From Nitrospiraceae bacterium (GTDB taxonomy: Bacteria; Nitrospirota; Nitrospiria; Nitrospirales; Nitrospiraceae), in the NCBI GenBank assembly GCA_919902505.1, contig CAKKRE010000016.1:62001-126000 (forward strand): DNA of 64,000 bases, in the 5' to 3' direction. A program made the translations under genes and the position numbers. Below the pieces are notes generated by a model that had not been told where the DNA came from, made no database searches, and saw only the letters and a list, made by a program, of their open reading frames with translations. Below, piece after piece: positions 7,307 through 30,233 of this stretch. Every line of letters starts with the position of its first letter. Position 1 is the stretch's first letter.

Positions 7307-7603
7307 CGTTAATCGGTCAACTTTCTAGATCCGCATCTGAATGTGCTTGCTGCGACTCACTGGACTCGCGCCGGACGGCACAGAAAACTCGGAAAAAGAT
7401 TACGCGGTGCATGTCATCGTAACCTACCACCGATCATCATATCAGTCCGAGCCTGGAGTATCAGAAGACTTGTAGGCGAAAATTTCCCATACAACCGAAG
7501 CGACGCTCTCGACCATTCCTGCTGAGGGCCCGACCGAGCAATAGTGGCGGGGCGACCCAAGCATGACGCCACTTCCGGCAAAGTTGGGCCGGCGATAGGA
7601 TTC

Positions 7604-8221
7604 CTACGTTGCGGAAGGGGCCAGTGAACATTCCCAGAGTTTCGTATACACCGAACCGGTGGGACGCAGTTCGCTTTTCAGGAGGACGATTGCCTCGACC
7701 GGCAACCTGCCGATCGCCACCGGCCGCTCCAACAACCCGTTCTGAGCCAGCGCCTGTCCGACCTGCCGCTCACCTTCCTTGATCCTCGCGAGCGTCAAAT
7801 GCGGACTGAATGGCCGCTCTTCCGGCGCAAAATTCGCCGCCCGGCAACAGGCCTCCACCGCACGATGGAGGGCTGCGAGCCGCTGCGCCTCACGGCCCTG
7901 CTCCCAACTTTCGAGCGGTCCCGCCCACAGCACCCGTGGTGCCTGCGGGCGCGGGAACGTACCCAGTCGTTCGAGAGGAATAGGAATCGCCTGATACGCT
8001 GACATGGACTCTTCGATGGCTACACGAAGCGGCTCAATCGATTCGTCGGCTGTGTCGCCGAGAAATCTGAGGGTGAGGTGCATCGAATCCGGCCGCACCC
8101 AGCTGATCCTCACGTGGCGATCGACCGTTCGTTCGAGTTGTCGCTTCATGTCCTGCTCAATGGTGGCGAGCGTCGTGCGCAATTCCTGTGGCAACTCGAT
8201 GGCCAGGAATGCCCGGACCAT
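7604..8221 (-). CDS. thpR: RNA 2',3'-cyclic phosphodiesterase ThpR
   Basis: This 2H-phosphoesterase hydrolyses RNA 2',3'-cyclic phosphate ends and is also known as an RNA ligase-like protein. The 205-residue product has both HxTx motifs, MHLTLRFLG (near residue 50) and PHLTLARI (near residue 140), which supply the two catalytic histidines. A GTG six bases further upstream is possible, but the ATG at 8221 overlaps the cinA stop codon by one base (TAATG), a classic coupling arrangement, so I prefer it. The cinA-thpR pairing is common in bacteria. Confidence 0.92.
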   Translation of the reverse strand: MVRAFLAIELPQELRTTLATIEQDMKRQLERTVDRHVRISWVRPDSMHLTLRFLGDTADESIEPLRVAIEESMSAYQAIPIPLERLGTFPRPQAPRVLWAGPLESWEQGREAQRLAALHRAVEACCRAANFAPEERPFSPHLTLARIKEGERQVGQALAQNGLLERPVAIGRLPVEAIVLLKSELRPTGSVYTKLWECSLAPSAT

Positions 8222-9501: not shown

Positions 9502-9548
9502 GCGGGATACACCTTTGCGATAGGCAGAGCGGTGGAGAGGGACTGATA

Positions 9549-10160
9549 CTATTCGATCTGCGAGAAGTCCAGCTCGAAGCTGACCTGGCCTCCTCTTGAA
9601 GGAAATACCGTGAGCCTCGCCTTCGCACGTGGGTCGAGTTCCGCGTAGGCGAACTGCGCGATCACCTTCGCGCGGTAGGCAGGCTGCTGCGGCCACACCA
9701 CCGTACGATCGCCCCTGGCGTCAAATCGAACTGTGGATGGTTTCACCGTCCGACCGGCCTGCTCCAGCACAACATAACTATCGGCGGCAAAATTCACACG
9801 GTCTCCATACAACACCACATTGACCAGCACATGCTCGTTCGCCATGACCTGAGCAATATCCTGTTCGGTCGGCGACAATGCGCGCAAGGAGAGGTGATTG
9901 GCCATCACCAGCAGGCTTCCCAGCTTCGTCATGATGAAACCGCGCGGGGCAAGGTCCTCGGTCGCACCGAACCAGGTGTGAAGTTGATCCGGAGAGATAG
10001 CTCGGCCGGCCGCCATCTTTCCACGCTCCACGGTCGACTGAATCTGTTCGGCCGTCGGCTGCACTTCGATGGCATACGATGAGCCGGCGCTCCTCGACAG
10101 GACCACGAAGAGGCTTCCCACGAGCCAGAATCCGGTCGGCAATCTTCGAGCGCTGCGCAT
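9549..10160 (-). CDS. Exported protein of unknown function
   Basis: I do not recognise a family. The 203-residue product starts with a likely Sec signal peptide (MRSARRLPTGFWLVGSLFVVLSRSAGSSYA), so it is probably periplasmic. The body is alpha/beta with a region rich in NEHVLVNVVLYGD and a C-terminal half predicted as beta strands, ending SFELDFSQIE. No cysteine or metal-binding cluster is visible after the signal. It is 47 bases upstream of cinA on the same strand and divergent from the hemQ-like gene, so it may be the first gene of a three-gene unit with cinA and thpR. Confidence 0.6.
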   Translation of the reverse strand: MRSARRLPTGFWLVGSLFVVLSRSAGSSYAIEVQPTAEQIQSTVERGKMAAGRAISPDQLHTWFGATEDLAPRGFIMTKLGSLLVMANHLSLRALSPTEQDIAQVMANEHVLVNVVLYGDRVNFAADSYVVLEQAGRTVKPSTVRFDARGDRTVVWPQQPAYRAKVIAQFAYAELDPRAKARLTVFPSRGGQVSFELDFSQIE

Positions 10161-10225
10161 CGTATGCAGGCAGTATCAGATCGATGTAGGCCTGTCAATT
10201 CGAGCCCCGCGCGCCCCGGACTCTG

Positions 10226-10255
10226 TTGACAGCTCCAGAGACGAAATGCTAAAGA
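10226..10255 (+). promoter_or_regulatory. Predicted promoter for the hemQ-like gene
   Basis: A perfect TTGACA (10226-10231), 18-base spacer and TAAAGA (10250-10255) lie about 50 bases upstream of the ATG at 10306. The -10 match is moderate. Confidence 0.45.
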
Positions 10256-10305
10256 GCTAACTCTTATTCTTTTACATTATCAAGAAGTTGCCTGGAGGGT
10301 TCGTC

Positions 10306-11013
10306 ATGTCCAGCCCCGAACAAGCACCCCGCCGTCAATACGTCAATTTTACCTTTTATAAGATCGATCCCGCTTGGCGTCGGCTTCCTGAAGATGAACG
10401 CACACGCGGAAAGCAGGAGTTTCTCCGTGCCGTCGAAGAGTATCAGGGGAAAGTGCTCGTCATCGCTTACACCACGGTGGGTATTCGAGGCGACTGCGAT
10501 CTGATGCTCTGGCGCATCAGCTACGAGCTTGAACTGTTCCAGGAAATGAGCACGAAGATCATGGCATCCGGATTGGGCAAGTATCTGTACAATCCCTATT
10601 CGTACCTCGCGATCACCAAACGCTCCATTTATGTCGACCACCACACGCATGAGAACCAGGAAAGCAAGCGGCTCACCGTGGTTCCCGGCAAGGCCAAGTA
10701 CATCTTCGTCTATCCGTTCGTGAAGACTCGTGAGTGGTTCCTGCTCACCAAAGCGGCGCGGCAGGGCATGATGGACGAACACATTGAAGTCGGCCACCGC
10801 TTTCCGTCGGTGAAGCTCAACACCACCTATTCTTTCGGTCTCGACGATCAGGAATGGGTTGTGGCCTTCGAGAGCGACAAGCCGGAAGACTTCCTGGACC
10901 TCGTCATGGCGCTCCGGGAAACCGAGGGCAGCCGGTACACTTTACGTGACACCCCGATTTTCACCTGCATCCGTAAGAGCCTGAAAGAAACCTTGGATAC
11001 CCTGGGCGGCTAA
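10306..11013 (+). CDS. hemQ: Chlorite-dismutase-superfamily protein, probably a coproheme decarboxylase (ChdC/HemQ-like)
   Basis: The 235-residue protein has the superfamily's two ferredoxin-like halves. In ChdC, coproheme III is decarboxylated to heme b. Residue Tyr136 in VYPFVKTREWFLL and candidate proximal His159 in DEHIEVGH are 23 apart, as I recall for the actinobacterial enzyme (Tyr135/His158). The C-terminal stretch SFGLDDQEWVVAFE and the RETEGSRYTLRDTP block also resemble that type. At the position 13 residues after the proximal His, true chlorite dismutases have the distal Arg; here it is Asn172, so chlorite breakdown is unlikely. No signal peptide is visible, so it is cytoplasmic. 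ATG 10306 has GGAGG upstream. A terminator palindrome follows. Confidence 0.75.
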   Translation: MSSPEQAPRRQYVNFTFYKIDPAWRRLPEDERTRGKQEFLRAVEEYQGKVLVIAYTTVGIRGDCDLMLWRISYELELFQEMSTKIMASGLGKYLYNPYSYLAITKRSIYVDHHTHENQESKRLTVVPGKAKYIFVYPFVKTREWFLLTKAARQGMMDEHIEVGHRFPSVKLNTTYSFGLDDQEWVVAFESDKPEDFLDLVMALRETEGSRYTLRDTPIFTCIRKSLKETLDTLGG

Positions 11014-11038
11014 TCGCGGTTACGCAGCAGTCTGTGGA

Positions 11039-11070
11039 CACGGCCTTCGATCCCGGGATCGAAGGCCGTG
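11039..11070 (+). terminator. Perfect 32-base palindrome, likely terminator after the hemQ-like gene
   Basis: The arm CACGGCCTTCGATCCC (11039-11054) is followed immediately by its exact reverse complement (11055-11070), then CCGTTTCTAT. It starts 25 bases after the stop at 11013. The downstream T-run is weak, so intrinsic termination is probable but not certain. Confidence 0.6.
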
Positions 11071-11116
11071 CCGTTTCTATCCCGACACGCCGCCTGATCT
11101 CACGCGTTCTCGATCA

Positions 11117-11779
11117 ATGTCCATCCACGCCCCTTATTACGCTATCCCCGATCGCCGCGCGGCGATCTACTCAGCCCTACTCCCCGGGCTCGGACAACTC
11201 ATTCGGGGGCGATATGGGGCAGGACTCTTCTACGGCCTGGGCACCATTCTCCTGATCCTCCTGAGCCTGGCGCTCGGGCGGGTCTCCGGTCGAGCCGCCG
11301 AAGTCTTCTTCTTTATGTTGTTGGCACTTCCGTGGTGGGCCCTGCAGAGCTACGACGCCGCTCTCGGACGGTCCGAGAGCGGTTCGGACCTTGCCCGCAG
11401 CACTCGAACCGCCTGGTCGCAGGGACACGATATCCGGTTTCTCGGACTTCTCTTTCTGGTCAGTGCTGGGAACGATGCCCTCTTGATCGCAAGAAATCCC
11501 GATTACCTGCTGCCGTTTTTTTGTACCAGGCTGGACGGCCCGGCCGGGTTCATCACCAAAGCGTTGTCACCGTTTCTCCATACCCTGGTCGGGTATGGCT
11601 TCTTACGAGTCAAGAAATGGTCCCTCCTGATCTATCTGGTCTATGCCGCCTACGGCACCACCAATGCCCTCGTCAATCTGGCCTGTTTTGGCCCCGGCCG
11701 GATCCGGAACACACTTCTCATCGCCCTCATCGTCTTTACGAGTTACGTGATCGCGCGGAAACGGGTCTTCCGACTCTGA
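11117..11779 (+). CDS. Multi-pass membrane protein of unknown function
   Basis: A 220-residue protein with about five hydrophobic segments, including LLPGLGQL near the N-terminus, YGLGTILLILLSLALG, VFFFMLLALPWWAL, LLIYLVYAAYG and LLIALIVFTSYVIA. The N-terminal pattern, a short polar stretch followed by AIYSALLPGLGQLIRGRYGAGLFYG, resembles TM2/DUF5683-like small membrane domains that begin with a GxGQ motif. That similarity is my only clue to family and no function follows from it. The ATG at 11117 begins just before this motif. It stands alone between the hemQ-like gene and a small hypothetical gene. Confidence 0.65.
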   Translation: MSIHAPYYAIPDRRAAIYSALLPGLGQLIRGRYGAGLFYGLGTILLILLSLALGRVSGRAAEVFFFMLLALPWWALQSYDAALGRSESGSDLARSTRTAWSQGHDIRFLGLLFLVSAGNDALLIARNPDYLLPFFCTRLDGPAGFITKALSPFLHTLVGYGFLRVKKWSLLIYLVYAAYGTTNALVNLACFGPGRIRNTLLIALIVFTSYVIARKRVFRL

Positions 11780-11879
11780 GCATCCCCATTCGAGCCCCCG
11801 ACGCGTTTTGACACTCGGGCTGGGGCTGTGTTACCTCTAATAGCTATACCGTTCCACACGATCAGACGGAGCAGCTTCC

Positions 11880-12092
11880 ATGGCCGAAAACAACGCGGTC
11901 TACGCCATTCGATTTCCCGACGGTTCCGTGACCTTGTACATCGACGAAGAATACGCCATTGACCGAGGCGTCGACCCCGCCAAGTTAGTCCGGATCGAAA
12001 TCCCTCGGGAACTGTTTGTCAGCGGCAGCATCCAGCAAATCCGTGAATATGTCGCGGTCTACCTTGAAACCAGCCATCAGGGCACGGCCTGA
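11880..12092 (+). CDS. Small protein of unknown function
   Basis: A 70-residue acidic, soluble protein (MAENNAVYAIRFPDGSVT start) with no signal peptide and no family I recognise. A GGAG motif lies about eight bases before the ATG. It ends 33 bases before the 389-residue gene at 12126 and probably forms a two-gene operon with it. Coding character is supported by GC-rich third positions and the tight spacing, not by homology. Confidence 0.6.
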   Translation: MAENNAVYAIRFPDGSVTLYIDEEYAIDRGVDPAKLVRIEIPRELFVSGSIQQIREYVAVYLETSHQGTA

Positions 12093-12125
12093 GCGAACCT
12101 TTTACGTCGCACGAGGGGCCACACC

Positions 12126-13295
12126 ATGACCGCTTTGCTCACCCCAGATCTCATTGCTTCGACAATCGAACAGGCCCCGATTCAGGGCCGCATCATGCTC
12201 AAGCTGCTGCTGTTGCAGCATTTCGATATCACGGAGGAAGAAATCACCCACATCGCGGCTGATCGGCCCGATCCGCGTTGCGTCGCCGGCTCGAAACCAA
12301 TTCACCAGGTTGTGAAACAAGATGCGTTACGTGATGTGACGAGCCGCCGTGACGAATATCGCCGCCGGGCCCGATTGCGCAGAGAACGCCTGTGGCTTCA
12401 GATGGAAAGTATGAAGGGGATGATCGCCCTCGCCGAGGGGTTGGTTCGTGCCGCCTCAGACCTCCTGCTCACACAATATAAGGTAGACGCGGCCGCAGTG
12501 ACCGCGATCAAACAGGAAGCTCGTGCGGCGGTTCCCAAGCCGGCCATCCGGCTGTTGAATCGCCGGTGGGACGAAGACGACATTTCCGCCGAAGCCTATC
12601 AGGAAGCCCGGCTCGGCCTGGAACTCCAAACGCAGCTGCGGTTATTGGACAAATACCGCAAACGGTTTGAACTCTCCGAGCGGGAGTGGAAGTCGATCAA
12701 CGCCGCCCCGTTGCAGGACCACGAAATCGGACATATCTGGGGGATCCCCGCCGGCAGCCTGGCCGCACGGAAGGTCAAACATCTTCATCAATACCTCCAG
12801 GCGATTCAAAAATTTCTCCAACGCTCGTCGGCCCTGGCGGTTCCCTCAACCGCGCCCCTCGATCTCTGGAAAGAGACCCTGGCCGTCTTGAGCGAACGAC
12901 CGGTGGAGCGATCCATCGCGCACTATGACGGGTTGGAACGCACCGAAGACGCGCTCGTGGAGAAACTTCGGACCTTCGCCTGGGGCACCCTGGGAGAAGA
13001 CCTCGAAGGAAAGTTCTGGCTCTCTCTCGTGCATGGTGCCAGCTCCAACGCCGTCCACTCTGAAAACACCCGTTCATTGTTTGGCCTGCAACGCTTGATG
13101 GCCGTGCTGTCGGAAATCGATACCAGTCCTGATGCGCTCGAGCAGGAGATGTTGACCCGCACGGCGCCGGTGACGAAGGAAGCCCTGGCGTTGGCGGATG
13201 AAGCGGCCCAACCGGCGGTGGAAGAAGTCGGGCAGATGAAACAGCATGTCTTGACGAGTTTTATGGGCGAGTTGCACGACGATCTGCGGCGATAG
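12126..13295 (+). CDS. Large helical protein of unknown function
   Basis: The 389-residue product is soluble, highly alpha-helical and charged. I recognise no catalytic motif. A basic stretch (RRDEYRRRARLRRERLWLQ, residues about 78-97) is followed by long amphipathic helices with leucine heptads, and the C-terminus is Glu/Ala-rich. GAGGGG lies eight bases before the ATG. It sits 33 bases after a 70-residue hypothetical gene. It may be a structural or partner-binding protein of this lineage; a homology search would be needed to say more. A likely terminator follows at 13324-13368. Confidence 0.65.
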   Translation: MTALLTPDLIASTIEQAPIQGRIMLKLLLLQHFDITEEEITHIAADRPDPRCVAGSKPIHQVVKQDALRDVTSRRDEYRRRARLRRERLWLQMESMKGMIALAEGLVRAASDLLLTQYKVDAAAVTAIKQEARAAVPKPAIRLLNRRWDEDDISAEAYQEARLGLELQTQLRLLDKYRKRFELSEREWKSINAAPLQDHEIGHIWGIPAGSLAARKVKHLHQYLQAIQKFLQRSSALAVPSTAPLDLWKETLAVLSERPVERSIAHYDGLERTEDALVEKLRTFAWGTLGEDLEGKFWLSLVHGASSNAVHSENTRSLFGLQRLMAVLSEIDTSPDALEQEMLTRTAPVTKEALALADEAAQPAVEEVGQMKQHVLTSFMGELHDDLRR

Positions 13296-13323
13296 CGGCT
13301 CGGGGCGACCATGGTGGCAGCCC

Positions 13324-13368
13324 CACGAACGAAGTGCGTATCGTGTGCTCGGTTCGTGAAACTTTTTT
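13324..13368 (+). terminator. Candidate intrinsic terminator after the 389-residue gene
   Basis: CACGAAC (13324-13330) pairs with GTTCGTG (13352-13358), with further possible pairing inside the loop, and is followed by a run of six T (13363-13368). Confidence 0.5.
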
Positions 13369-13378
13369 CAGCACCTCC

Positions 13379-13407
13379 TTCTCAGCCTGGAGTGAATTTT
13401 GTATAAT
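13379..13407 (+). promoter_or_regulatory. Candidate promoter placed for a leaderless transcript
   Basis: TTCTCA (13379-13384, four of six matches), a 17-base spacer and a perfect TATAAT (13402-13407). The -10 ends six bases before the ATG at 13414, so transcription would begin at or next to the start codon. Confidence 0.5.
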
Positions 13408-13413
13408 CCAACC

Positions 13414-13854
13414 ATGAGGCGGCACACCACGAACAGACATTCGCTCCGGCTCACGACGACCAAGATGGTCTTCCTGCTCGGAATCTTGACTGTCCTGGCG
13501 TGGGCCCTCCCCATCAGCTTACTCTCCGCTACGGCCTTGGTCGAAGTGACGGAACTCCTGGCCCATCCCGAGCACTACGACCATCAAGTCGTCACCGTGA
13601 GCGGGCGCGTGACCAGCTTTCAGCTCGCCACCAATCGCGACGGTCACCCGGCGTTCGGCTTTCTCCTGCAGGACACCGCAGGAACCGTGAAGGTCGTGGG
13701 GTTGGGAAAATCGGATGTGCGGGAGGGTGACTACGTGGTGGTCGAAGGGATCTTCAGCCGTCTTCGTCAGGCCGGCCGCGCTATTGTGTATAACGAGATC
13801 AAGGCCACATCGGTCCAGTCGATGGCCAGGATGAATCCAGACCTGGTCGGTTAA
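13414..13854 (+). CDS. Exported OB-fold (nucleic-acid-binding-like) domain protein
   Basis: The product of about 146 residues has a basic N-terminus, a hydrophobic signal segment (MVFLLGILTVLAWALPISLLSATA), then one domain: VTELLAHPEHYDHQVVTVSGRVTSFQ, FGFLLQDTAGTVKVVGLG, GDYVVVEGIFSRLR. This is the beta-barrel pattern of OB-fold tRNA_anti-like or CcmE-like domains, which in exported proteins often has no known ligand. The start is uncertain: ATG 13414 has no ribosome site but follows a TATAAT box, while TTG 13399 follows GGAG. The gene converges with the FKBP gene and overlaps its end by four bases. Confidence 0.65.
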   Translation: MRRHTTNRHSLRLTTTKMVFLLGILTVLAWALPISLLSATALVEVTELLAHPEHYDHQVVTVSGRVTSFQLATNRDGHPAFGFLLQDTAGTVKVVGLGKSDVREGDYVVVEGIFSRLRQAGRAIVYNEIKATSVQSMARMNPDLVG

Positions 13855-14327
13855 CGCGCGGCTTTCCCCCCGGACAAAACCCCTGTCATCAGCTGGCGTT
13901 CACCGCGCTGGATGTCCACTACCCTGACATCGAACAACAACGTCTTCCCGGCAAGCGGATGGTTGAGGTCGAGCACGATCACCTCCGGCCTGATGTCGGC
14001 GACGTAAGGAAACACCACTCGACCGTCCGGAGCGGTGGTTTCCAACTTCATCCCGACCCGTTGGGCCTCTTCCGGAACTCGATCTCGACTGACTTCGAAA
14101 AACCCCTCGGGGTGAATCTCTCCATAGGCATCGACCGGCTCAACTGTGATGACCTTGGTCCCTCCGATCTCCATTCCATCAAGCCCCGCCTCCAACCCCT
14201 GTAATATTTCATTCCGACCATGGGTGTAGGTCAACGGAGTCTCACCAACAGTTGTCTCGATCACGCGCTCGTTTTCCAGACGAATGGTGTATTCAACGGA
14301 AACGATATCTCCCTCGGATACGTTCAT
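13851..14327 (-). CDS. FKBP-type peptidyl-prolyl isomerase, SlyD-like
   Basis: The 158-residue protein has the SlyD layout: an FKBP half (VSEGDIVSVEYTIRLENERVI, then TYTHGRNEILQGLEAGLDGM), an inserted chaperone flap (about 70-125, EPVDAYGEIHPEGFFEVSRD) and the return strand LDLNHPLAGKTLLFDVRVVDI. Such proteins isomerise X-Pro bonds and help folding in the cytoplasm; SlyD also binds nickel through a His-rich tail, which is absent here. ATG 14327 has AGGGGG upstream and is preferred over the in-frame GTG three bases earlier. It overlaps the convergent OB-fold gene at the 3' end. Confidence 0.9.
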   Translation of the reverse strand: MNVSEGDIVSVEYTIRLENERVIETTVGETPLTYTHGRNEILQGLEAGLDGMEIGGTKVITVEPVDAYGEIHPEGFFEVSRDRVPEEAQRVGMKLETTAPDGRVVFPYVADIRPEVIVLDLNHPLAGKTLLFDVRVVDIQRGERQLMTGVLSGGKAAR

Positions 14328-14599
14328 CACTCAGCCCCCTTCGTTGACCGTCACTAGCGGGGTCCTCCACTTCCATCTCGAACATTGCAGGCCGCAATGT
14401 CCACAGCCTCCGTTTGTGCACTGGAGGAAACCGGCGATGCATCCTGCAACACCCTATCACGACAATGTCACAGGGTCATGTGAATAGCGGGAAGCACCGC
14501 CATGCTGCCAACCGGTGTGAACCGATGAGTCACGCGCAGACAATGCGGCTGCTGCTTGAGAACACCGGTAAAAGGGCGGGAACAGGCAGGGACTGCTCG

Positions 14600-15199
14600 T
14601 TACCAGTGACGGAAGGGACCTGAATCGAGATGGACAAACTTGCCACGCGGGTAATATCCCACCCCGCCACAACCCAGCCGTAACGCCACCTCACGCAAGG
14701 TCCGCAGCGGCACACCGGGAATCTGCATATCCACGGCCTGTCCAGACACATGGTAGCTGTGGCGAGCTGCACGGGTGCCCATTCTGATGAGCTGCTCGTT
14801 ATATTCGGGGGACCGGTAACCGGACACAATATGCACCTCACGCCGGCCGCCGACCCGCTTTTGGACAAGATTGATGAATTCGATGAGTTGCACGTCCATC
14901 GTGGCGGTTTCGTTCGTATGGTGACAGCGCAGAAAATGATTGAGCGCGTTGAGCGCATCCTGATCGTACGCGCCTGCCTCGTCCCGGTACGTCACCGACA
15001 ACCGTTCATCGGTATGGAGGTTGTACAAACTCACCCGGCCATCGGGCAGTCGTGAGGCCCACACCGCAGACGGAAGGGCCAGGCGAACCACAGCCAGCGC
15101 CATCCCGGTCGTCGCCGCGCGCAACAATCCGCGCCGGCTCAAGAGGGCTGGTGCATCGGAAACCATCGATTGACTCTTACTCGAAGACATACTTACCAT
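14600..15199 (-). CDS. Tat-exported YcbK-type (M15/DUF882) murein peptidase
   Basis: The 199-residue protein starts with a twin-arginine signal (SRRGLLRAATTGMALAVV). The mature part is a DUF882/peptidase M15_2 domain: HIVSGYRSPEYN, SYHVSGQAVDMQIPGV and GKFVHLDSGPFRHW supply the zinc ligands HxxGxAxD and the final His. Family members are related to D-Ala-D-Ala dipeptidases and act on or near peptidoglycan in the periplasm. Three in-frame ATGs (15199, 15190, 15166) precede the signal and none has a strong ribosome site, so the start is uncertain. It stands alone, with nearly 300 bases on each side. Confidence 0.88.
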   Translation of the reverse strand: MVSMSSSKSQSMVSDAPALLSRRGLLRAATTGMALAVVRLALPSAVWASRLPDGRVSLYNLHTDERLSVTYRDEAGAYDQDALNALNHFLRCHHTNETATMDVQLIEFINLVQKRVGGRREVHIVSGYRSPEYNEQLIRMGTRAARHSYHVSGQAVDMQIPGVPLRTLREVALRLGCGGVGYYPRGKFVHLDSGPFRHW

Positions 15200-15495
15200 T
15201 TCGCGCCGTCAGCACGTCACTGACAAGGCTGGCCCATAGATTTCTTAACCCGCCATGCGTGAAGCAAACAATTCACGCGTACCATTGTTACAGGATGGGC
15301 TACAGGCCAAGGGGAGGAGCCGTACCCCGGAGAACAGCAAGATCAGCAGGTGATCGGAGACTGTTGTATGTACCAAATACCTGTACGACGGTCAACCGTT
15401 TTACACACCTGTGCGCTCGCATCCACCTGGGAGAGTCACAGGGTTGTATCACTACGGCACACCGACCACGACCATCTCACGCTACCGGCCGCTTA

Positions 15496-16908
15496 TCAAT
15501 GCTCTGACAGCGAGACCCGCGGGAACACCCCGAGCGCTCGCCGCACATCAAGCGTCCGGTCCATCCCGTACTGGCGCAGCCGTCGATACAACGTCGAACG
15601 ACTGATGCCTAATTCCTGAGCGGCTCGACTCAAGTTCCCCTGCGACAGCGTGAAGGCCTTCATGATCAGATGGGTCTCGATCCGCTGTTGATTCACCTTG
15701 AGCGAAATCGAGCTGCCGTCCGGTCGCGCCACCTCGTGCGGGATATCCAGATCCGCCGGAGTCACGTGCGTGCCTTCCGCCATCACCACCGCACGACCGA
15801 CCCTGTTCGACAATTCACGCACATTCCCCGGCCAGGCATAGGCGCGCATCGCCTCCAACGCTTCGCGGGTCAACCCCTCCAGATGTTTATCGTAATGGGC
15901 TGCCGCCTGACGCAGGAACGCCATGGCCATCAACGACACATCCTCACCGCGCTCCCGAAGCGGAGGCACATTGATATGGACAACCCCGAGCCGATAGTAG
16001 AGGTCCTCACGGAACGTTCCTTTTTCAATGGCCTCCTTCAGATTCACATTCGTGGCGGCGATGATTCGCACGTTTATTTCAATCGGCTGATGCCCGCCCA
16101 CCCGCTCAAACGTGTGATCCTGCAGAAACCGCAATAATTTGATCTGCAAGGCATTCGGGAGTTCGCCCACTTCATCGAGGAAGAGCGTCCCCCCTTGAGC
16201 AAATTCAACCTTGCCTTTCTTTTGGCTCACCGCTCCCGTAAAGGCTCCACGCTCGTACCCGAAAAGCTCCGATTCCAGCAAACTTTCCGGAATCGCCCCG
16301 CAGTTGATAGGAATGAACGGTCCCTGTTGCCGCAACCCTCTCTCGTGGATCGCGCGCGCCGTCAGCTCCTTGCCTGTGCCGCTTTCCCCGGTGATCAAGA
16401 TCGGCGCATCGTTCGTGGCAACCTTTCGTATGGCGTCGAAGATACGGTGAATGCTGGCGCTGGTGCCGAGCATGCCGCTGAATTCTTCAGGGCCTCCTCC
16501 AACCATGACACCTCGGGCCTCCCGCTCCAGATCAGCCACTCCCGCAGCCCGCCGGATGAGTTGTGTCAGAAGGGTGCTATCCAGCGGTTTAGACAACACA
16601 TCGTACGCTCCATACTGAATCGCGCGGACGGCAAGCCGGCGCTCCGTCTGTTCCGTGCAGGCAATGACCTTTCCGGCATGCCCGGTTTGTCGCACTTCCT
16701 GCAGAACCCGCACACGCTCCTCGACAGCGGGATCGGACGAGGCCCCCAAATCCAGAAGTATGACCAACGGGGCCTGTTCGTGGATCTGAACCACCGCCGT
16801 CCGATCCCATGCGGCCACGAACACCTCACACTCGCTCTCGATCGAGCTACGCACAGCGGCAACGGTTGCCTGATCATCTGTGAGAACAAATACCTTGGGT
16901 TTCGCCAC
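15496..16908 (-). CDS. NtrC-family sigma-54-dependent response regulator
   Basis: The 470-residue protein has three domains. The receiver (1-120) has acidic residues at 11-12, the phospho-acceptor Asp53 in LLDLG, and Lys in VLSKPLD. The AAA+ domain (about 145-380) has GESGTGKE, the sigma-54 contact loop GAFTGA and the FLDEVGELP Walker B region. A Fis-type HTH (about 420-460) reads LSRAAQELGISRSTLYRRL. It should activate sigma-54 promoters when phosphorylated. The frame opens at 16962, but GTG 16908 has AAAGGAG eight bases upstream and starts right at the receiver. No partner kinase is adjacent. Confidence 0.93.
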   Translation of the reverse strand: MAKPKVFVLTDDQATVAAVRSSIESECEVFVAAWDRTAVVQIHEQAPLVILLDLGASSDPAVEERVRVLQEVRQTGHAGKVIACTEQTERRLAVRAIQYGAYDVLSKPLDSTLLTQLIRRAAGVADLEREARGVMVGGGPEEFSGMLGTSASIHRIFDAIRKVATNDAPILITGESGTGKELTARAIHERGLRQQGPFIPINCGAIPESLLESELFGYERGAFTGAVSQKKGKVEFAQGGTLFLDEVGELPNALQIKLLRFLQDHTFERVGGHQPIEINVRIIAATNVNLKEAIEKGTFREDLYYRLGVVHINVPPLRERGEDVSLMAMAFLRQAAAHYDKHLEGLTREALEAMRAYAWPGNVRELSNRVGRAVVMAEGTHVTPADLDIPHEVARPDGSSISLKVNQQRIETHLIMKAFTLSQGNLSRAAQELGISRSTLYRRLRQYGMDRTLDVRRALGVFPRVSLSEH

Positions 16909-17015
16909 GATTCGGCTCCTTTCAGCTGGTGAGACACTGGCACGATGGGACGGCTGACCCATCGTCGCACTGTCTCTGCTAGGCGGTGTCTGAGCAAGTC
17001 AGGCGTGAAGGCGTA

Positions 17016-17405
17016 CTACGAGAGCGGCGATGGCGGATCCAGCGAATCACACATAAAGACATCCGCACCGAAAGCCTTGGTCAGATCCGGAGCCACCCCA
17101 TCCCGGGCATCCGTTGATTGATCCACCATCGCAATAATCGGCACTTGCGGGCAGGTCATTTTGAGTCTGGGAACGGTACTGTGCAGCGGCGTCGGAGCGG
17201 ACGACACTCTCACCACAATCACATCCGGACGAAGTTCCTTCAGGTTACGCTCCAGGTGATGGACTGCCGACGTCATGGTGACTTGGTACCCGTGCAGCGC
17301 AAACCAATCGGCACACTTGTAGCCGGTCGTGACGTCTTCGTACACCACGGCGACCGTGGGTCGCTTCCCGGCTCGCGGTCCGCTTCTACCAGTCGGTTGC
17401 TCCAT
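17016..17405 (-). CDS. Stand-alone pseudo-receiver domain protein
   Basis: The 129-residue product is a response-regulator receiver fold: RPTVAVVYEDV, then RPDVIVVRVSS, VPIIAMVDQ and FGADVFMC in the expected strand order. At the end of strand 3, where the phosphorylated Asp belongs, the sequence is VVRVS, and the conserved Lys of strand 5 is also missing. It is therefore probably not phosphorylated. The frame continues upstream to 17672 without a ribosome site or conserved sequence; ATG 17405 is the best start. It lies about 107 bases upstream of the NtrC-type gene and may modulate it or the kinase system beyond it. Confidence 0.65.
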   Translation of the reverse strand: MEQPTGRSGPRAGKRPTVAVVYEDVTTGYKCADWFALHGYQVTMTSAVHHLERNLKELRPDVIVVRVSSAPTPLHSTVPRLKMTCPQVPIIAMVDQSTDARDGVAPDLTKAFGADVFMCDSLDPPSPLS

Positions 17406-23686: not shown

Positions 23687-24370
23687 ATGCGCGCGCGAAC
23701 AACATGCCCCAGAAGCGGCACATTCTCAGGCATGGTTGCGGGAGTCGTCCTCTCCCTCACTGCCCTGCTTTCATTGCTTCCCTCTGCCGCCTCAGCAAGC
23801 CGAACCCTCACAGTCCCCATCTCCATCGCCACCTACACGGACGATCAAGTCGGCTTCCCGACATTTGTAATGAAATGGGACGAAGGAAGCCAGCCGGATC
23901 CATTGTCGTTGCGGTGGGGGCGGAGTCAGGTTCCTGTCAGAGGGACCGGGATGAGCTCCATTCAGCGGGCCTTTCGCTTTGCCGTCGAACGCCTTGCTCC
24001 ATCCGTCCGTCCGACCGGAACATTATCCCTCTATGCGACATTTTCCGGACCATTGAACGCGGAGGGAGCCACTGCAGAAGCCGCCCTGGCCATCGGTTTC
24101 CTCGCCCTGTTGAAAGGTGACCACCTGAAACAGGACATTACGATCACCGGTACGCTGGAAGGCGATGGCCGGATCGGACAAGTCGCGCAGGTGGCTGAAA
24201 AAACAACGGCAGCAGCGAGGGCCGGCTACCACGTGCTGCTGGTGCCGCGAGGGCAGTTTTATGCCCCGCGAGTCAATCGAGTCAGCCTGAATCTCGAATC
24301 GAATGTGTTGGTGCGTGAAGTGGAGACGATCGAGGAAGCCTACGAAATCATGACCGGGAAAAAGCTCTAG
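23687..24370 (+). CDS. Exported Lon-protease-like (S16) domain protein with Thr at the nucleophile position
   Basis: The 227-residue product has a signal-like N-terminus (hydrophobic MVAGVVLSLTALLSLLPSAASA, residues 16-37) and then a single Lon proteolytic-type domain: ITITGTLEGDGRIGQVAQVAEKTTAAARAGYHVLLVPRGQ is its diagnostic block. Lon uses a Ser-Lys dyad. Aligning back from TGTLEGDG puts Thr129 (in AEGATAEAA) at the Ser position, and Lys172 falls exactly 43 residues on, the spacing of E. coli Ser679/Lys722. There is no ATPase domain. It could be a Thr protease or an inactive binder. It converges with the CHAT gene. ATG 23687 is assumed; 23732 is an alternative. Confidence 0.75.
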   Translation: MRARTTCPRSGTFSGMVAGVVLSLTALLSLLPSAASASRTLTVPISIATYTDDQVGFPTFVMKWDEGSQPDPLSLRWGRSQVPVRGTGMSSIQRAFRFAVERLAPSVRPTGTLSLYATFSGPLNAEGATAEAALAIGFLALLKGDHLKQDITITGTLEGDGRIGQVAQVAEKTTAAARAGYHVLLVPRGQFYAPRVNRVSLNLESNVLVREVETIEEAYEIMTGKKL

Positions 24371-24508: not shown

Positions 24509-26983
24509 TCACATCCAATTGTTGATCAAGAGGAATGCCGCCCAGAAGCTGGGGTGGGTGTGACCGCGCTGGGAAAGAATCTTTTGCTGGGCCCGTTGCA
24601 ATGCAACAGCCTTCGACAGCGCGGGATCCTGCAATTGCCTGTAAAATTCCGACACGAGTTCCGTGGTCGTTTCATCATCCGACGTCCACAAACTCGCCAA
24701 CGCCGTCCGCGCCCCTGTCTTGACGGCCACACCACTCAACCCGAGCGCCGCACGATCATCCTCGGCAGCGATCTCGCAGGAGCTGAGCGTCAACAGATCC
24801 AAGGGCTGCTGCCGGTATTGCTGAAGACCCACCAGCTGCGACAACCGGTCCATCGTGATCTTGCCGTCATGAGCCAGCACAAACGAATCTCTGGCCTCGG
24901 TGCCGACGACCGTGTGGGACGCAACATGAACAATCCCCACTCCCTGGTCCTTGATCTCTTCCTCCAGAGACGGTGCAGAGAACTGCTTGTTCATCAACAG
25001 CTTTCCGCCATACAGCGTTCTGATGGCTTGGACTTCGGTCTCCGCGTACCGCGGAGCAGACAGGCCCTCGACCGATTCAGTCAGGCCGACAGACAGCAGA
25101 CTGCCTTTGCGGCGCTGGGCAGCACTCAGATCGGTCAACGCCAGACTCGGCGTGACGGCCACTGCAAGCGAATCCACGAGAAAATGCCGCCCATCGTGCA
25201 AGGCCCCCATTGGAATGGTCCGGAGCGATCCCTCGGCCACCACCACGAGCGTATGAATACTGGCTCCCTGCAGGTCCTGCTGAAGAGGCGCGATCAGCCA
25301 CCCATGTAACGCCTGCGCGGAAGACATGTAGTTCTGCGATTGGGAATCCTGGATCAGCCGCCTGAACGAACGGACCTCTTTCGTCAGCTTCTCTCCCGTC
25401 ACAGGAACCCTGACCTGCTTAAGCCCATTGGCTGTTTCCAGGAGCAGTTCGAGCCGGTCCGGGAAAGAAATCGGATACACCACCGCGGTGCCGGGCGCCA
25501 GCGTGCCGGCGCCTCGACGACTCGCGACCGTCGTCACACAATCGTCCTGGAAATAATCCTGCAGCTCGGCCGCATGGGAAACTTCAACCGTGTCCTTGAC
25601 CTGAACAAGCAACTGTTCATTCTGGTCGGGCGTCTTCGCCGCCGCCGCTCTCCGCAACAAGACATCCTCGTACTCCACAAACAACGGCGCAACGGACTCG
25701 TAGTACGAGTGGTGCCGTCCCTGATACCCCACGGAATATTCGTAGTGAATCGGCTTCAGCAGCGTCACGGCACGCTGATACGCGGCCAGGGCTTCTTCTT
25801 CTTTGCCCTCCGCACGCAGCAGCCTCGCCGTTTGCCATTGCCAACGGTACAGCGATTCCGGCGCGTTCACCTTTTGAGCCGCGAAGGTGGCCTTCCGTGA
25901 ATACTCCAGCGCCTCGGGATTGCGATGTTCCTGCTCCAGCAATCCACCCAAATAGCCCCAGGCGTACGATTGTCCCCGCGCATCGCCGGTGCGCCCGGCC
26001 ACTTCACCGGCCGCGGTAAAGGCATCGGACGATTGCCGTAACAGGCCGGCTCCCAGCCCGGCGGAAGCAACGGCCTCCGTCGCGCGCCCCTTCCCCGCAT
26101 CCGATTTCCTGGCCAGGCCGGATTTCGCGGTCGTGGCGGCGAACAGTTCCTGATATCCGAGGCCGATGTTCAACAGACCGGCCGTCTTCGCCTGACCATC
26201 CCCCAGCGACCGCACATCCGACCAGGCTTGATCCAGATGACGATGCGCTTCACTCAGTTGTTGATTCTGGAGCAAGGCCATCGCGCCGTTGATTTGGGCC
26301 GTTGTCGCCAGTGCCGGCTGCTTGGTCTCGTTAGCAAGGCTCCGGCTCTCCGCATAGACGTCGATCGCTTCGGCAAACTGCCGACGGGCCGTGAGAGCAT
26401 TACCCAGATCGTTCAGGACCCCGGCAATCAACAGAGGCTTGTTCTCCTCACGCGCCAGCGTCAAGGCTCTCGTCAAATGCTCGGTGGCGGGTTCGTCCTT
26501 CCCGAGCACGTGGAAGGTATTACCGAGCTGAGCGAGGATCGTCGCCGTGAGGCCACGCTCACCGTTCTGTTCCGAGAGTTTGAGCGCGGCTTGCAACGTG
26601 CCTTGCGCGCGACGGATCTGTCCTTCCTGCTGAAGCGCATGCGCGAGGTTGATCAACGCCTGGCATTGCTCTTTTGCCTGCCCACTCTCTTCGTAGCCGC
26701 GTGCGGCATTCATCCAGTGTGCGGCGGCCTGGGCAAACGCACCCTGCTGAAATTGTGTCGTCCCCTGTCTCATTTCTTGCGAAGGCGAGATCGACGACGC
26801 ACCCGAACCGCCGAACAATTCCACCGCGATCCCGCTCGCAGGCCAAGCCAATCCGCTCAACGCAAGCACCCCAACGCTCAGCATCGTCAACGGCGAGGAA
26901 AGCGCGCGCGTGGCGGAGAGACCAGCGGACGCCTGCCTCCGCTTCATGCCGCGGCGAATGACCATATTACGCTTCATAGGCAT
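24509..26983 (-). CDS. Exported TPR-CHAT (caspase-fold) protein
   Basis: The 824-residue protein starts with a signal peptide (residues about 25-55). Residues about 70-440 form tetratricopeptide-like helical repeats (for example ATILAQLGNTFHVLGKDEPATEHLTRAL). The C-terminus (about 520-824) is a CHAT domain, a caspase-like cysteine protease fold. Both dyad residues are intact: His690 in HVASHTVVG and Cys736 in LSSCEIAAED. It ends with the typical HPSFWAAFLLINNW. ATG 26983 has AAGGAGG five bases upstream. It is the last gene of the tpsB-tpsA-CHAT operon (18-base gap), which suggests that it acts on, or is activated with, the secreted TpsA. Confidence 0.9.
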   Translation of the reverse strand: MPMKRNMVIRRGMKRRQASAGLSATRALSSPLTMLSVGVLALSGLAWPASGIAVELFGGSGASSISPSQEMRQGTTQFQQGAFAQAAAHWMNAARGYEESGQAKEQCQALINLAHALQQEGQIRRAQGTLQAALKLSEQNGERGLTATILAQLGNTFHVLGKDEPATEHLTRALTLAREENKPLLIAGVLNDLGNALTARRQFAEAIDVYAESRSLANETKQPALATTAQINGAMALLQNQQLSEAHRHLDQAWSDVRSLGDGQAKTAGLLNIGLGYQELFAATTAKSGLARKSDAGKGRATEAVASAGLGAGLLRQSSDAFTAAGEVAGRTGDARGQSYAWGYLGGLLEQEHRNPEALEYSRKATFAAQKVNAPESLYRWQWQTARLLRAEGKEEEALAAYQRAVTLLKPIHYEYSVGYQGRHHSYYESVAPLFVEYEDVLLRRAAAAKTPDQNEQLLVQVKDTVEVSHAAELQDYFQDDCVTTVASRRGAGTLAPGTAVVYPISFPDRLELLLETANGLKQVRVPVTGEKLTKEVRSFRRLIQDSQSQNYMSSAQALHGWLIAPLQQDLQGASIHTLVVVAEGSLRTIPMGALHDGRHFLVDSLAVAVTPSLALTDLSAAQRRKGSLLSVGLTESVEGLSAPRYAETEVQAIRTLYGGKLLMNKQFSAPSLEEEIKDQGVGIVHVASHTVVGTEARDSFVLAHDGKITMDRLSQLVGLQQYRQQPLDLLTLSSCEIAAEDDRAALGLSGVAVKTGARTALASLWTSDDETTTELVSEFYRQLQDPALSKAVALQRAQQKILSQRGHTHPSFWAAFLLINNWM

Positions 26984-27001
26984 GACGTCCTCCTTGGGGA
27001 G

Positions 27002-28279
27002 CTAGCACCCCTGCCATGATTCCATAAGTTGTGCCGTCGACTGACTCTGCCTCTGTGCTGTTTGTGTCGCCGGAGCCCCCGGCTCGCCTTCGCTGCCGAC
27101 CTCCTCCAGCACCACAGGCGCCGCCAGAGAGGCGCCTGGTTGCGACGGCGTGACGTCACGCGAGGCTTGAACAAGGCTACTGAATGCGCCGTCCTTCCGT
27201 GCAGCGCAGCGGCTGGTCAATAACGGGGCCGGGGGAGCCGGAGCGTCCTGGGGAAGCAGCACCGCGGCGCGATTCAAGAACGCCACAGGCTCGACAGGAT
27301 TGGCCGTATTCACGCTTGCTGCATTCGCGGTAGGAAGAGGCGGAAGCCCGCCAAGATTCACCCCCACGACCTGGATTTGCGTCACACGTTGATTGAACGG
27401 ATTCGTCGTCGTGTTGACCTGCGCTCCTGTCGGCACGCTCACATTCGGGCTCACATCGATAGAGGCGGGAATCACTCCTCCGCCACCCGCGACAATCAGA
27501 GTCCCGGGAAGGGCTTGGACCTGCCCGTTTCCTGACGCGCCGGAAAAAGGATTGCCGACAAATGGCTGAACACTCATCTCGCCGGCCGAGCTCGTACTGC
27601 CGAGCATGACTCGCTGCGCGCTGATTTTCGATCCATTGATCTGAATCCCTCCCCCCATCAAGCCGAGTACAGCCCCGGTCTGGAGCACCGTTGAGGCAGA
27701 AGATAAGACGATCGAACCGTAGGGGCCCTGCCCGAAAAACCCGAAGGAAACAGGCGAGCCGACCGACAAGGTCGAGTCGAAGGCCAGGAGACCGGTGTTG
27801 GCCGTAAAGATTCCGCCATCACTCAAACGCAATTGCTGAGCGGTGCTGAAATAGGCAGACCCTGACACGTTCAGTTGAGCTGTAGGGCCGAACACGATCC
27901 CGGAAGGATTGATGAAGAACAGGTTCGCGTTGAGCGCTTGAACCGTACCATTAATGTTGGATGGCGATCCCCCGATCACCCGACTGATGACGTTGGACAC
28001 GCCACCGGGATTCACGAACGCCGCCACATCCCCCGTGCCGACGGAGAATTGATTGAAGCTATGAAAGAGGTTCGGGCCGCTTCCCGGTCTGGTTCCGCCG
28101 GTAATGTTCGTGGTATTGCCCGAGGTGCTCAGGGAGGTCCCAAGACCGCCCGGCCCGGAGGGGGTCGCGACGATGTTCGTCGCCTGGCCATAGGCGATCG
28201 ACCCCGTATGGCCCGCGAGCATCAGGAAGGCGAGTAACCCATGAATGAACAGCGGCAGTCCTGCGGGGCGACACGTCAT
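27002..28279 (-). CDS. Short two-partner-secretion exoprotein TpsA with filamentous-haemagglutinin N-terminal domain
   Basis: The 425-residue product has a signal peptide ending near GSIAYGQA and a TPS domain (about 30-270): the GGTRPGSGPNLFHSFNQFSVGTGDVAAF and LFFINPSGIVFGPTAQLNV blocks (NPSG standing for the usual NPNG) are the parts recognised by the TpsB partner. The rest is beta-rich and Gly/Ser/Asn-rich, without the long repeats of large haemagglutinins, and ends with a single-Cys-pair motif SRCAARKDG. Such proteins are exported across the outer membrane and may act at the cell surface. ATG 28279 has GAGGAG eight bases upstream. It follows tpsB by 136 bases. Confidence 0.85.
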   Translation of the reverse strand: MTCRPAGLPLFIHGLLAFLMLAGHTGSIAYGQATNIVATPSGPGGLGTSLSTSGNTTNITGGTRPGSGPNLFHSFNQFSVGTGDVAAFVNPGGVSNVISRVIGGSPSNINGTVQALNANLFFINPSGIVFGPTAQLNVSGSAYFSTAQQLRLSDGGIFTANTGLLAFDSTLSVGSPVSFGFFGQGPYGSIVLSSASTVLQTGAVLGLMGGGIQINGSKISAQRVMLGSTSSAGEMSVQPFVGNPFSGASGNGQVQALPGTLIVAGGGGVIPASIDVSPNVSVPTGAQVNTTTNPFNQRVTQIQVVGVNLGGLPPLPTANAASVNTANPVEPVAFLNRAAVLLPQDAPAPPAPLLTSRCAARKDGAFSSLVQASRDVTPSQPGASLAAPVVLEEVGSEGEPGAPATQTAQRQSQSTAQLMESWQGC

Positions 28280-28415
28280 GGTGATTCTCCTCATGTGATA
28301 AGAGAGGACGGCCTCCTCTCTTACCCTAAACGGCACACAACTTCAACACGCATAACCCCTTACTCCGTGAGACGCCCCCTGTAGGACACCATCCCTCGGC
28401 CCTGGCCATTCGCCC

Positions 28416-30233
28416 CTAGAACGCCTCTACCACCAGTTGCAGATGGATGCCGTGATCCTGCAGGTTGTTGCGGTCGGTATCGTACCGCTTCAACTGTTTT
28501 CCATAATAGAGTTCGAAATGACTCCCGCGCCAGAAATTCCAGATGACGCCGGCACCCAGACTCGCCAACGTTTTCGGGGGGGTACCGGGCGTCTGGGCCG
28601 TCGTTTGCCAGCCGTGACCCAAATCGAAGAAGGGCGCGAGAAAGACTGAATCCACACCGGCCTTCGTCGTATACACCGGAACCCGCGCCTCGATCGATAA
28701 CATGGCGGCATTGTCACGAATCAGCGTGAATTCCCGATAGCCGCGCACGCTGTACCGGCCGCCGACCGCAATCTGTTCGAGAGGGAACAGGTGGTCGTTG
28801 GACAATTGAACGACTCCCCGGCTGACCAACTGCGTGCGCCATAAGGGAAGCTGGCGGATCCACTGAGCCTCTCCCAACCAGGAGAAGAAACGCGCATCCG
28901 GCAGGTTCGGATCGCCGTTCGCGGTCGCCCCCATGGCTCCGACACCGACGGAGAAACGTGATAACAGGGAAATCACCTGTTCGGCGGAACGGCGGGCATA
29001 TTCCTGACCGAAGCGGAGTGAGGTTACGCGGAACTTCCCGTTCGGCGACCCAGTGATGAGCTCGAACGGATTCCCTCCTAACGTGCTTTCATTCCGGGCA
29101 TGTTCGCCCGTGAGGGAAAAGGCCAGCTCCTGGTCGGCCGTCCGGATGACGGGATGTCTGACCGACAGCCCGAAAATCTGAGCCTTGTTCTTGATATCCA
29201 ACGCATCGAACGGCGATTCCTCGACTCCGAAATCGAACCGGCGATATTGCAGCGCGACGGTGGTGTCACGCGGGCCTACCGGAATTTCGTATTTAAAGTT
29301 GAGCATCGGATTCACCCCGGCCGACCGCCCGTATTGCAAACTCAGCGTATCGCCGAAGCCCAGCAGGTTCTGGTGAGCCAGCGTGATGAACCCTTGCTCC
29401 GCACCCACGACCGGAGACTGGTAGTTGTTGAATTCCAGCCAGGCCTTCAAGGGATTGGCTTCCTTCACTTTCACGTTCAGCGTATTCTCCCCAAGAGTCG
29501 CGCCCGGTAACAGTTCGGCGTTGATCCGTTCGATCCGGGGATTGGCCTGCATCACGCGCAACCGTTCCTGGAGTGCTTCGACATGCAGCGGAGGACCGGC
29601 TGCCAGATTGACCCGGCTCTGAAAATAGGAGGGCCGGAACCACTTGGTATCCTCGACATTCACCTGCGTAATCTTTCCCTCGATGATCTGCATGGTCAGG
29701 ACGCCGTCCGCGACATCCTGCTCCGGGACCACCGCACCGGAGGTTAAATATCCATGGTTGACGTAGTAGTACGTGAGAGCCAGGCGCAACGATTCCAGAT
29801 CCTCCGCCGTCAGCTCGCGATTGGTATAGGGCGAAGTGACTTCGGAGAGCTGTTGCGAGGTGAAGGCGGTATTGCCGATCAGCCGGATATCCTTCACCAT
29901 AATCTTGGGCCCCTTGGCCGCCTGATCGAGTGCACTTGGGGGGCGGGGTGCCGGCACCTCAATAGCGGGAGGCTGTGCGGGAGGCGGGACGACAGGCAAT
30001 TGCGGCAATTTCGGGGGCAACGGACCGAGCTGGGAGCCGGTCTGCGAATAGACCGGCGTTGCCAGCGCACCGAGCAGCAGAATAGCCGTCACCCCGGCAA
30101 AGACTCGACGCCACCCCTCCCGCCCTCGGCTTCCCCTCTGGTGACGTGACGGACCGCCAGGAACCGCCGCACCCGCACAGGCCGCCTCATTGCCCCCTGC
30201 TTCTTGCCCCATACACTTCTTCACGCAAGCCAT
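28416..30233 (-). CDS. TpsB outer-membrane transporter (ShlB/FhaC/HecB family)
   Basis: TpsB secretes its TpsA partner across the outer membrane. The 605-residue product has a long basic N-terminus and a hydrophobic signal segment (GVTAILLLGALATPVYSQ), a proline-rich linker (PKLPQLPVVPPPAQPP), two POTRA domains (KDIRLIGNTAFTSQQLS and the VLTMQIIEGKITQVNVED region) and a 16-strand barrel. The barrel shows RGYREFTLIRDNAAMLSIEARVP and ends in a C-terminal Phe, as outer-membrane proteins do. The frame is open to 30398; ATG 30233 has GGGGAGG six bases upstream. It is the first gene of the operon. Confidence 0.9.
   Translation of the reverse strand: MACVKKCMGQEAGGNEAACAGAAVPGGPSRHQRGSRGREGWRRVFAGVTAILLLGALATPVYSQTGSQLGPLPPKLPQLPVVPPPAQPPAIEVPAPRPPSALDQAAKGPKIMVKDIRLIGNTAFTSQQLSEVTSPYTNRELTAEDLESLRLALTYYYVNHGYLTSGAVVPEQDVADGVLTMQIIEGKITQVNVEDTKWFRPSYFQSRVNLAAGPPLHVEALQERLRVMQANPRIERINAELLPGATLGENTLNVKVKEANPLKAWLEFNNYQSPVVGAEQGFITLAHQNLLGFGDTLSLQYGRSAGVNPMLNFKYEIPVGPRDTTVALQYRRFDFGVEESPFDALDIKNKAQIFGLSVRHPVIRTADQELAFSLTGEHARNESTLGGNPFELITGSPNGKFRVTSLRFGQEYARRSAEQVISLLSRFSVGVGAMGATANGDPNLPDARFFSWLGEAQWIRQLPLWRTQLVSRGVVQLSNDHLFPLEQIAVGGRYSVRGYREFTLIRDNAAMLSIEARVPVYTTKAGVDSVFLAPFFDLGHGWQTTAQTPGTPPKTLASLGAGVIWNFWRGSHFELYYGKQLKRYDTDRNNLQDHGIHLQLVVEAF

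What the first reader, a model, noticed from the sequence alone, without database searches (positions are those of the whole stretch)
24509..30233. Two-partner-secretion operon that ends with an exported CHAT protease
TpsB, a short TpsA and a TPR-CHAT protein with intact His690/Cys736 are in one operon (gaps of 136 and 18 bases). This suggests a surface exoprotein processed by, or controlling, a caspase-like protease in the periplasm. Similar pairings may exist in cyanobacteria, but the biology is undescribed to my knowledge.
Basis: partly seen in the sequence, partly recalled or inferred. Interest (0 to 1): 0.7.

Follow-up and report, generated by a model that had tools for sequence, protein, structure and literature searches.

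The report
Two-partner secretion with caspase-like third partner
A Nitrospira bacterium carries a three-gene unit that sends a small protein through the outer membrane and always comes with an exported caspase-like protein; the same unit recurs in many phyla and once as a single fused gene, so the caspase-like protein is very probably a real, so far undescribed, third part of the secretion system.

Summary
TpsB, a short TpsA and an exported TPR-CHAT protein lie on one strand, 136 and 18 bases apart, with His690 and Cys736 present. The link is not chance. This genome has exactly two TPS proteins and two ShlB transporters, and both sets sit beside an exported TPR-CHAT. In 147 family genomes: 89 have both, 42 neither, 13 TPS only, 3 CHAT only. 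TpsA plus TpsB flank TPR-CHAT in 46 of 47 and 39 of 44 loci, including other phyla. An Acaryochloris protein fuses TPS, tail, TPR and CHAT.

New here: CHAT-linked TpsA proteins share a C-terminal tail (C..G.SSF...R[D/G]..P..P, then a final Cys; even Cys counts in 100 of 100). CHAT-less FHA-type TpsA proteins lack it. I propose that the tail is a periplasmic retention loop read by TPR-CHAT, as LapG does for CdrA.

Qualification: the window's own clade has a drifted active site (HT for HG) and lost His or Cys at least four times while still under purifying selection. Active proteolysis is likely for the family but unsure for this copy. I found no paper describing the system. New variant of a known kind.

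The parts
28416..30233 (-). tpsB: outer-membrane TPS transporter with signal peptide, POTRA domain (29676-29897) and ShlB barrel (28545-29492)
   Evidence: Pfam POTRA_2 3.1e-22, ShlB 1.6e-32; one of only two ShlB genes in the genome
27002..28279 (-). tpsA: short exoprotein, signal peptide, TPS secretion domain (27572-28141) and a disordered tail; no large passenger
   Evidence: Pfam TPS 1.2e-33; model: beta-helix 53-326, residues 327-444 under pLDDT 50; matches EtpA, HMW1 and HxuA secretion domains
27002..27208 (-). TpsA C-terminal tail: Cys377, Arg393-Asp394, Pro397, Pro400-Gly401, Pro407 and the last residue Cys444; the only two Cys of the mature protein
   Evidence: Conserved in 13 and 18 TpsA; 103 of 108 CHAT-linked TpsA carry the tail; Cys count always even
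24509..26983 (-). TPR-CHAT: exported caspase-fold protein, signal peptide (about 26825-26983), TPR superhelix (25550-26794), CHAT domain (24524-25321)
   Evidence: Pfam CHAT 5.2e-50 and TPR_12; model pLDDT 78, best matches Csx29/TPR-CHAT, separase and DdvA
24914..24916 (-). His690 codon, putative catalytic His in HVASHT
   Evidence: His in 92 of 92 distant relatives and 27 of 31 near relatives
24776..24778 (-). Cys736 codon, putative nucleophile in LSSCEI
   Evidence: Cys in 92 of 92 distant relatives and 30 of 31 near relatives
28297..28325 (-). 12-bp stem hairpin GGTAAGAGAGGA-GGCCG-TCCTCTCTTATC just before tpsA
   Evidence: Also in near relatives with changed stem bases, absent in more distant ones; the region as a whole folds no better than shuffles (z -1.26)

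Best explanation
This is a three-partner type Vb secretion module. TpsB exports TpsA. TpsA's C-terminal tail, closed by a disulfide between its two invariant Cys, stays in the periplasm and holds TpsA on TpsB. The exported TPR-CHAT protein sits in the periplasm, binds that tail through its TPR superhelix and, in members with the canonical active site, cuts in or near it (for example after the invariant Arg) to release or mature TpsA. Shown: the operon, the domains, the signal-peptide-like N-termini, the conserved link, the fusion and the tail. Inferred: the disulfide, the periplasmic place of the tail, the TPR-tail contact and the cut. In the window's own clade TpsA has shrunk to secretion domain plus tail and the CHAT active site has drifted, so binding or gating rather than cutting may be what remains in some members.
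For: Own genome: 2 TPS genes and 2 ShlB genes, each set beside one of the two exported TPR-CHAT genes; the third CHAT has another architecture. Family of 147 genomes: 89 both, 3 CHAT only, 13 TPS only, 42 neither, Fisher 1e-21 without correction for relatedness. Neighbourhood: 46 of 47 family loci and 39 of 44 full-flank loci have TpsA and TpsB, in Nitrospirota, Desulfobacterota, Planctomycetes and others and in cyanobacteria. Fusion: 1756-aa Acaryochloris protein WP_261892134.1 = TPS 24-229, tail CAVPRSGQSQFIVTGRGGLPLMP, TPR, CHAT 1486-1754, with no inner signal peptide. Tail in 103 of 108 CHAT-linked TpsA; absent from six complete CHAT-less FHA-type TpsA. Cys counts 2, 4 or 6 in 100 of 100. 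His and Cys kept in 121 of 127. Distances of CHAT and of TpsA/TpsB correlate; 0 of 300 permutations as high. Precedent: CdrA is held by a cysteine hook and released by the periplasmic protease LapG (PMC5422565, PMC11898600); LapG family C93 is absent from this genome.
Against: No cleavage has been seen. In the window's clade five of 31 CHATs have lost His or Cys (four separate losses; a fifth in a neighbouring lineage), yet TpsA tails read in such loci are unchanged and dN/dS stays below 0.1. Four of 44 full-flank CHAT loci have no TPS nearby. G012 has a TpsA with the tail and no exported TPR-CHAT. Order and strand of the genes vary: only 28 of 44 have a TPS gene upstream on the same strand within 150 bases. 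A cut inside a closed disulfide loop would not by itself release TpsA.
Confidence: 0.5

Rival explanations
1. TPR-CHAT is a non-catalytic third partner: a periplasmic holdase, plug or pacing factor that binds the TpsA tail or the TpsB POTRA domain. Catalysis is not needed, at least in the window's clade.
For: Repeated loss of His690 or Cys736 and of the HG glycine in this clade, with strong purifying selection on the TPR and CHAT parts alike. TPR repeats commonly bind extended peptides (general knowledge). DdvA, a transmembrane anti-sigma factor, has a similar fold by structure search.
Against: Outside this clade the dyad is kept in 92 of 92, with HG in 86 of 92 and Ala735 in 92 of 92, which speaks for catalysis in the family as a whole.
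Confidence: 0.27
2. TpsA and CHAT form a surface sensing and response device: TpsA is the surface part, and a blocked or occupied TpsA signals to periplasmic CHAT, which cuts another target such as DUF928, CHASE2 or an anti-sigma partner.
For: DUF928 lies near CHAT in many long-TpsA loci (27 of 44). CHASE2, DUF1822 and sigma-70 genes lie beside CHAT-TPS genes in cyanobacteria. Csx29 cuts a third protein, Csx30, that binds and inhibits a sigma factor (PMC10028731).
Against: The window's short-type loci show no DUF928 homologue, and in the family the link of CHAT to TpsA and TpsB is tighter than its link to DUF928.
Confidence: 0.15
3. The three genes are only neighbours; CHAT has a separate envelope function and the operon is accidental.
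For: Four of 44 CHAT loci lack TPS nearby.
Against: Recurrence in several gene orders and several phyla, one-to-one pairing in the genome, and the fusion.
Confidence: 0.04

Closest known systems
CdrA/CdrB with LapG of Pseudomonas aeruginosa (TPS adhesin released by a periplasmic cysteine protease)
   Same: TpsA held by C-terminal Cys; periplasmic protease in the proposed role; release from the surface (PMC5422565, PMC11898600)
   Different: LapG belongs to family C93, is encoded outside the TPS operon and is controlled by c-di-GMP; here a caspase/separase fold with TPR repeats, encoded with TpsA and TpsB; no C93 gene in this genome
HMW1/HMW2, HxuABC and other TPS systems with extra partners
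   Same: TPS domain fold, C-terminal disulfide anchor, a third gene in the operon
   Different: The third partner there is a glycosyltransferase or a TonB-dependent transporter; the 2017 review states that maturation protease genes appear not to be part of the TPS operons (PMC5422565)
Csx29 / TPR-CHAT of Craspase (type III-E CRISPR)
   Same: TPR superhelix followed by a caspase-like CHAT domain with a His/Cys dyad; best structure match
   Different: RNA-triggered and bound to Cas7-11; about 10% identity; cuts Csx30 (PMC10028731)
Separase
   Same: Helical-repeat superhelix plus caspase-like domain
   Different: Eukaryotic and much larger; cuts cohesin (general knowledge)
Cyanobacterial CHAT / DUF928 / CHASE2 / TPS gene clusters (annotated in records; no paper found)
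   Same: Same pairing of TpsA, TpsB and TPR-CHAT, related tail motif, one fusion
   Different: Longer TpsA; extra signalling genes; GRGGLP in place of RD..P in the tail

Membership tests
Two-partner secretion (type Vb) | TpsA with signal peptide and N-terminal TPS domain | tested here: met
   Pfam TPS 1.2e-33; model matches EtpA, HMW1 and HxuA secretion domains
Two-partner secretion (type Vb) | TpsB with POTRA and ShlB/FhaC barrel next to tpsA | tested here: met
   POTRA_2 3e-22, ShlB 2e-32, 136 bases upstream
Two-partner secretion (type Vb) | Large passenger after the TPS domain (usual, not strictly required) | tested here: not met
   Window TpsA ends after the TPS domain with a disordered tail; the paralogue on contig C18 (1224 aa) is long
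TPR-CHAT peptidases (caspase-like clan) | CHAT domain with catalytic His and Cys | tested here: met
   CHAT 5e-50, H690 and C736 present
TPR-CHAT peptidases (caspase-like clan) | Canonical HG and SAC[QE]T around the dyad | tested here: not met
   HT and SSCEI in the window; HG in 86 of 92 and SAC in 92 of 92 distant relatives
TPR-CHAT peptidases (caspase-like clan) | Measured endopeptidase activity | not testable with these tools
   Needs purified protein
Cysteine-hook-anchored TpsA (HMW1, HxuA, CdrA type) | Disulfide-capable Cys pair at the C-terminus | tested here: inconclusive
   Only Cys377 and Cys444 in the mature protein and even Cys counts in 100 of 100 relatives; the bond was not tested and the 67-residue spacing differs from the short pair seen in the CHAT-less TpsA
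LapG / CdrA release system | Peptidase of family C93 (LapG) | tested here: not met
   No PF06035 match in the genome
Craspase (type III-E CRISPR) | Cas7-11 partner for the TPR-CHAT | tested here: not met
   The gene's partners are TPS genes and it has a signal-peptide-like N-terminus

The most novel reading that the evidence does not exclude
A widespread, undescribed type Vb secretion variant in which a dedicated separase/caspase-fold peptidase, encoded with or fused to TpsA, reads a conserved disulfide-closed tail in the periplasm and decides whether the exoprotein stays on the surface or is released, with a branch in Nitrospira turning into a non-catalytic version.
Probability: 0.35. Interest if true: 0.75.

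Novelty: new variant of a known kind. Interest (0 to 1): 0.6.

Why it matters
Two-partner secretion is thought of as a two-protein machine whose maturation proteases, where known, are encoded elsewhere. A conserved, operon-encoded and once fused caspase/separase-fold partner would add a built-in processing or release step, put a TPR-CHAT protein in the periplasm rather than in the cytosol, and give a defined tail to test. In Nitrospira, a major nitrifier that lives in aggregates and biofilms, such a switch could control surface proteins.

Tried and rejected
1. A 1241-aa ORF in L046 looked like a TpsA-CHAT fusion; its N-terminal part is the wrong frame of tpsA. Rejected.
2. A 1366-aa TpsB-CHAT ORF in L118 looked like a fusion; an ambiguous codon at the junction probably hides the stop, and CHAT there has its own signal-peptide-like start. 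Rejected.
3. The hairpin before tpsA as a terminator or conserved RNA element: not terminator-like, region z-score -1.26, present in near relatives only. Left as minor.
4. LapG doing the job instead: no C93 gene in the genome.
5. Literature: no paper in the held library has 'CHAT domain' together with 'two-partner secretion' or 'filamentous hemagglutinin'; 'DdvA' gave no relevant paper.
6. More fusions in cyanobacterial genomes could not be sought ('of' takes genome handles only). In the plasmid collection the Kovacikia place with near-full cover is two separate ORFs.
7. Direct repeats, tRNAs and mobile-element context were not pursued beyond a tRNA scan (none).

Full report
Observation. The window is contig C16 of a 4.24 Mb genome. 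By protein identity the organism is a Nitrospira close to Candidatus N. defluvii (95-96% over the CHAT protein). On the minus strand lie tpsB, tpsA and a TPR-CHAT gene with gaps of 136 and 18 bases. Pfam confirms each one. No promoter-like or terminator-like site lies in the gaps. The CHAT protein has a signal-peptide-like N-terminus. By a simple score of my own, 110 of 127 relatives have one, against 27 of 127 for the same test in mid-protein.

The pairing is real. The genome holds two TPS domains, two ShlB transporters and two exported TPR-CHAT proteins, in two loci, one of each per locus. In the second locus, contig C18, TpsA is 1224 aa long and two DUF928-family genes follow CHAT. In 147 genomes of the family, strong CHAT homologues and TPS domains occur together in 89, TPS alone in 13, CHAT alone in 3 and neither in 42. 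The Fisher value of 1e-21 is not corrected for relatedness. TpsA and TpsB flank CHAT in 46 of 47 family loci and in 39 of 44 named loci with enough flank; four of the 44 have neither. The named loci include Desulfobacterales, Scalindua, Rokubacteria, Acidobacteria and Verrucomicrobia records, many of them MAGs. Six of the ten cyanobacterial plasmid loci that I picked by CHAT alone have TPS or TpsB within 10 kb or fused. Sequence distances of CHAT and of the TPS domain correlate across 80 loci (Spearman 0.69; with TpsB 0.75), and none of 300 permutations reached the CHAT-TPS value.

A natural fusion. Acaryochloris marina MBIC10699 plasmid pREC3 encodes a 1756-aa protein with a TPS domain (24-229), a long passenger, the tail motif CAVPRSGQSQFIVTGRGGLPLMP, TPR repeats and CHAT (1486-1754), with no inner signal peptide and with the CHAT His and Cys in place. 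It comes from a complete plasmid. Only one such fusion was found.

The tail. CHAT-linked TpsA proteins share a C-terminal tail: Cys, then G.SSF, R[D/G], P..P, then a Cys at or near the end. In the window these are Cys377, Arg393, Asp394, Pro397, Pro400, Gly401, Pro407 and Cys444. A profile of the tail hits 103 of 108 complete CHAT-linked TpsA. It does not hit the FHA-type TpsA of the same family that have a TpsB but no CHAT; six of these are complete. The cyanobacterial TpsA tails read roughly C...F...G[RK]GG[LI]P..P...C. Counted from the TPS domain on, 100 distinct TpsA have 2, 4 or 6 Cys, never an odd number, and the short ones exactly two. This points to disulfides. One exception: G012 has a tailed TpsA without an exported TPR-CHAT. 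The window's TpsA is the TPS domain plus this tail: the model gives a beta-helix at 53-326 and disorder after it, with matches to the secretion domains of EtpA, HMW1 and HxuA.

The active site. His690 and Cys736 are present in 121 of 127 relatives. Outside the window's clade they are present in 92 of 92, mostly in the setting H[IV]A[ST]HG and LSAC.T. Inside it the setting is HVASHT and LSSCEI or similar, and five of 31 members have Gln, Arg or Ser in place of His or Cys. The tree needs five separate changes when the neighbouring L046 copy is included. dN/dS stays below 0.1 for keepers and losers alike, so the proteins are still needed. In the same clade the residue before the tail Arg is no longer Gly (2 of 30, against 48 or more of 57 in long TpsA). 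That is one shared history, not independent proof of co-evolution.

Mechanism. The best model is a periplasmic TPR-CHAT that reads the retained tail of TpsA. The analogue is CdrA, held by a cysteine hook and released by the periplasmic protease LapG (PMC5422565, PMC11898600). LapG's family is absent here. [quoted passage not shown] Steps shown: operon, domains, signal-peptide-like starts, link, fusion, tail. Steps inferred: disulfide, periplasmic tail, TPR contact, cut. For the window's own protein I hold active cutting and a binding-only role to be about equally likely.

Comparison. By structure the CHAT protein is nearest to Csx29/TPR-CHAT and separase, and also to the transmembrane anti-sigma factor DdvA; these matches are distant (about 10% identity for Csx29). 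It is a TPS system by its TpsA and TpsB, and a TPR-CHAT protein by its third gene. It is not Craspase and not LapG/CdrA.

Noticed in passing
window 23687-24370 (+): An exported-looking 227-aa protein with a Lon (S16) C-terminal-type domain (Pfam 1.4e-7) faces the CHAT gene and is kept beside it in nearly all genus loci. Its catalytic-region motifs look degenerate by eye.
   Followed up: partly
L034 (own contig C18, 28000-46000): The second module of this genome: TpsA 1224 aa, TpsB, TPR-CHAT and two DUF928-family genes, with two TonB receptor genes on its far side.
   Followed up: yes
L046 (G014), 7408-17331: Two tandem TpsB-TpsA-CHAT modules; one CHAT has lost both catalytic residues (HIASRG, LSATET) while the other keeps them.
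   Followed up: yes
L003 (own contig C82): The third CHAT protein of this genome has a hydrolase-like N-terminal part by eye and does not lie beside TPS genes.
   Followed up: no
window 28297-28325 (-): A 12-bp stem hairpin just upstream of the tpsA start, kept with stem changes in near relatives.
   Followed up: partly
L134, L195, L196: In cyanobacteria CHAT genes lie with DUF928, CHASE2, DUF1822 and sigma-70 genes, a larger cluster for which I found no paper.
   Followed up: no
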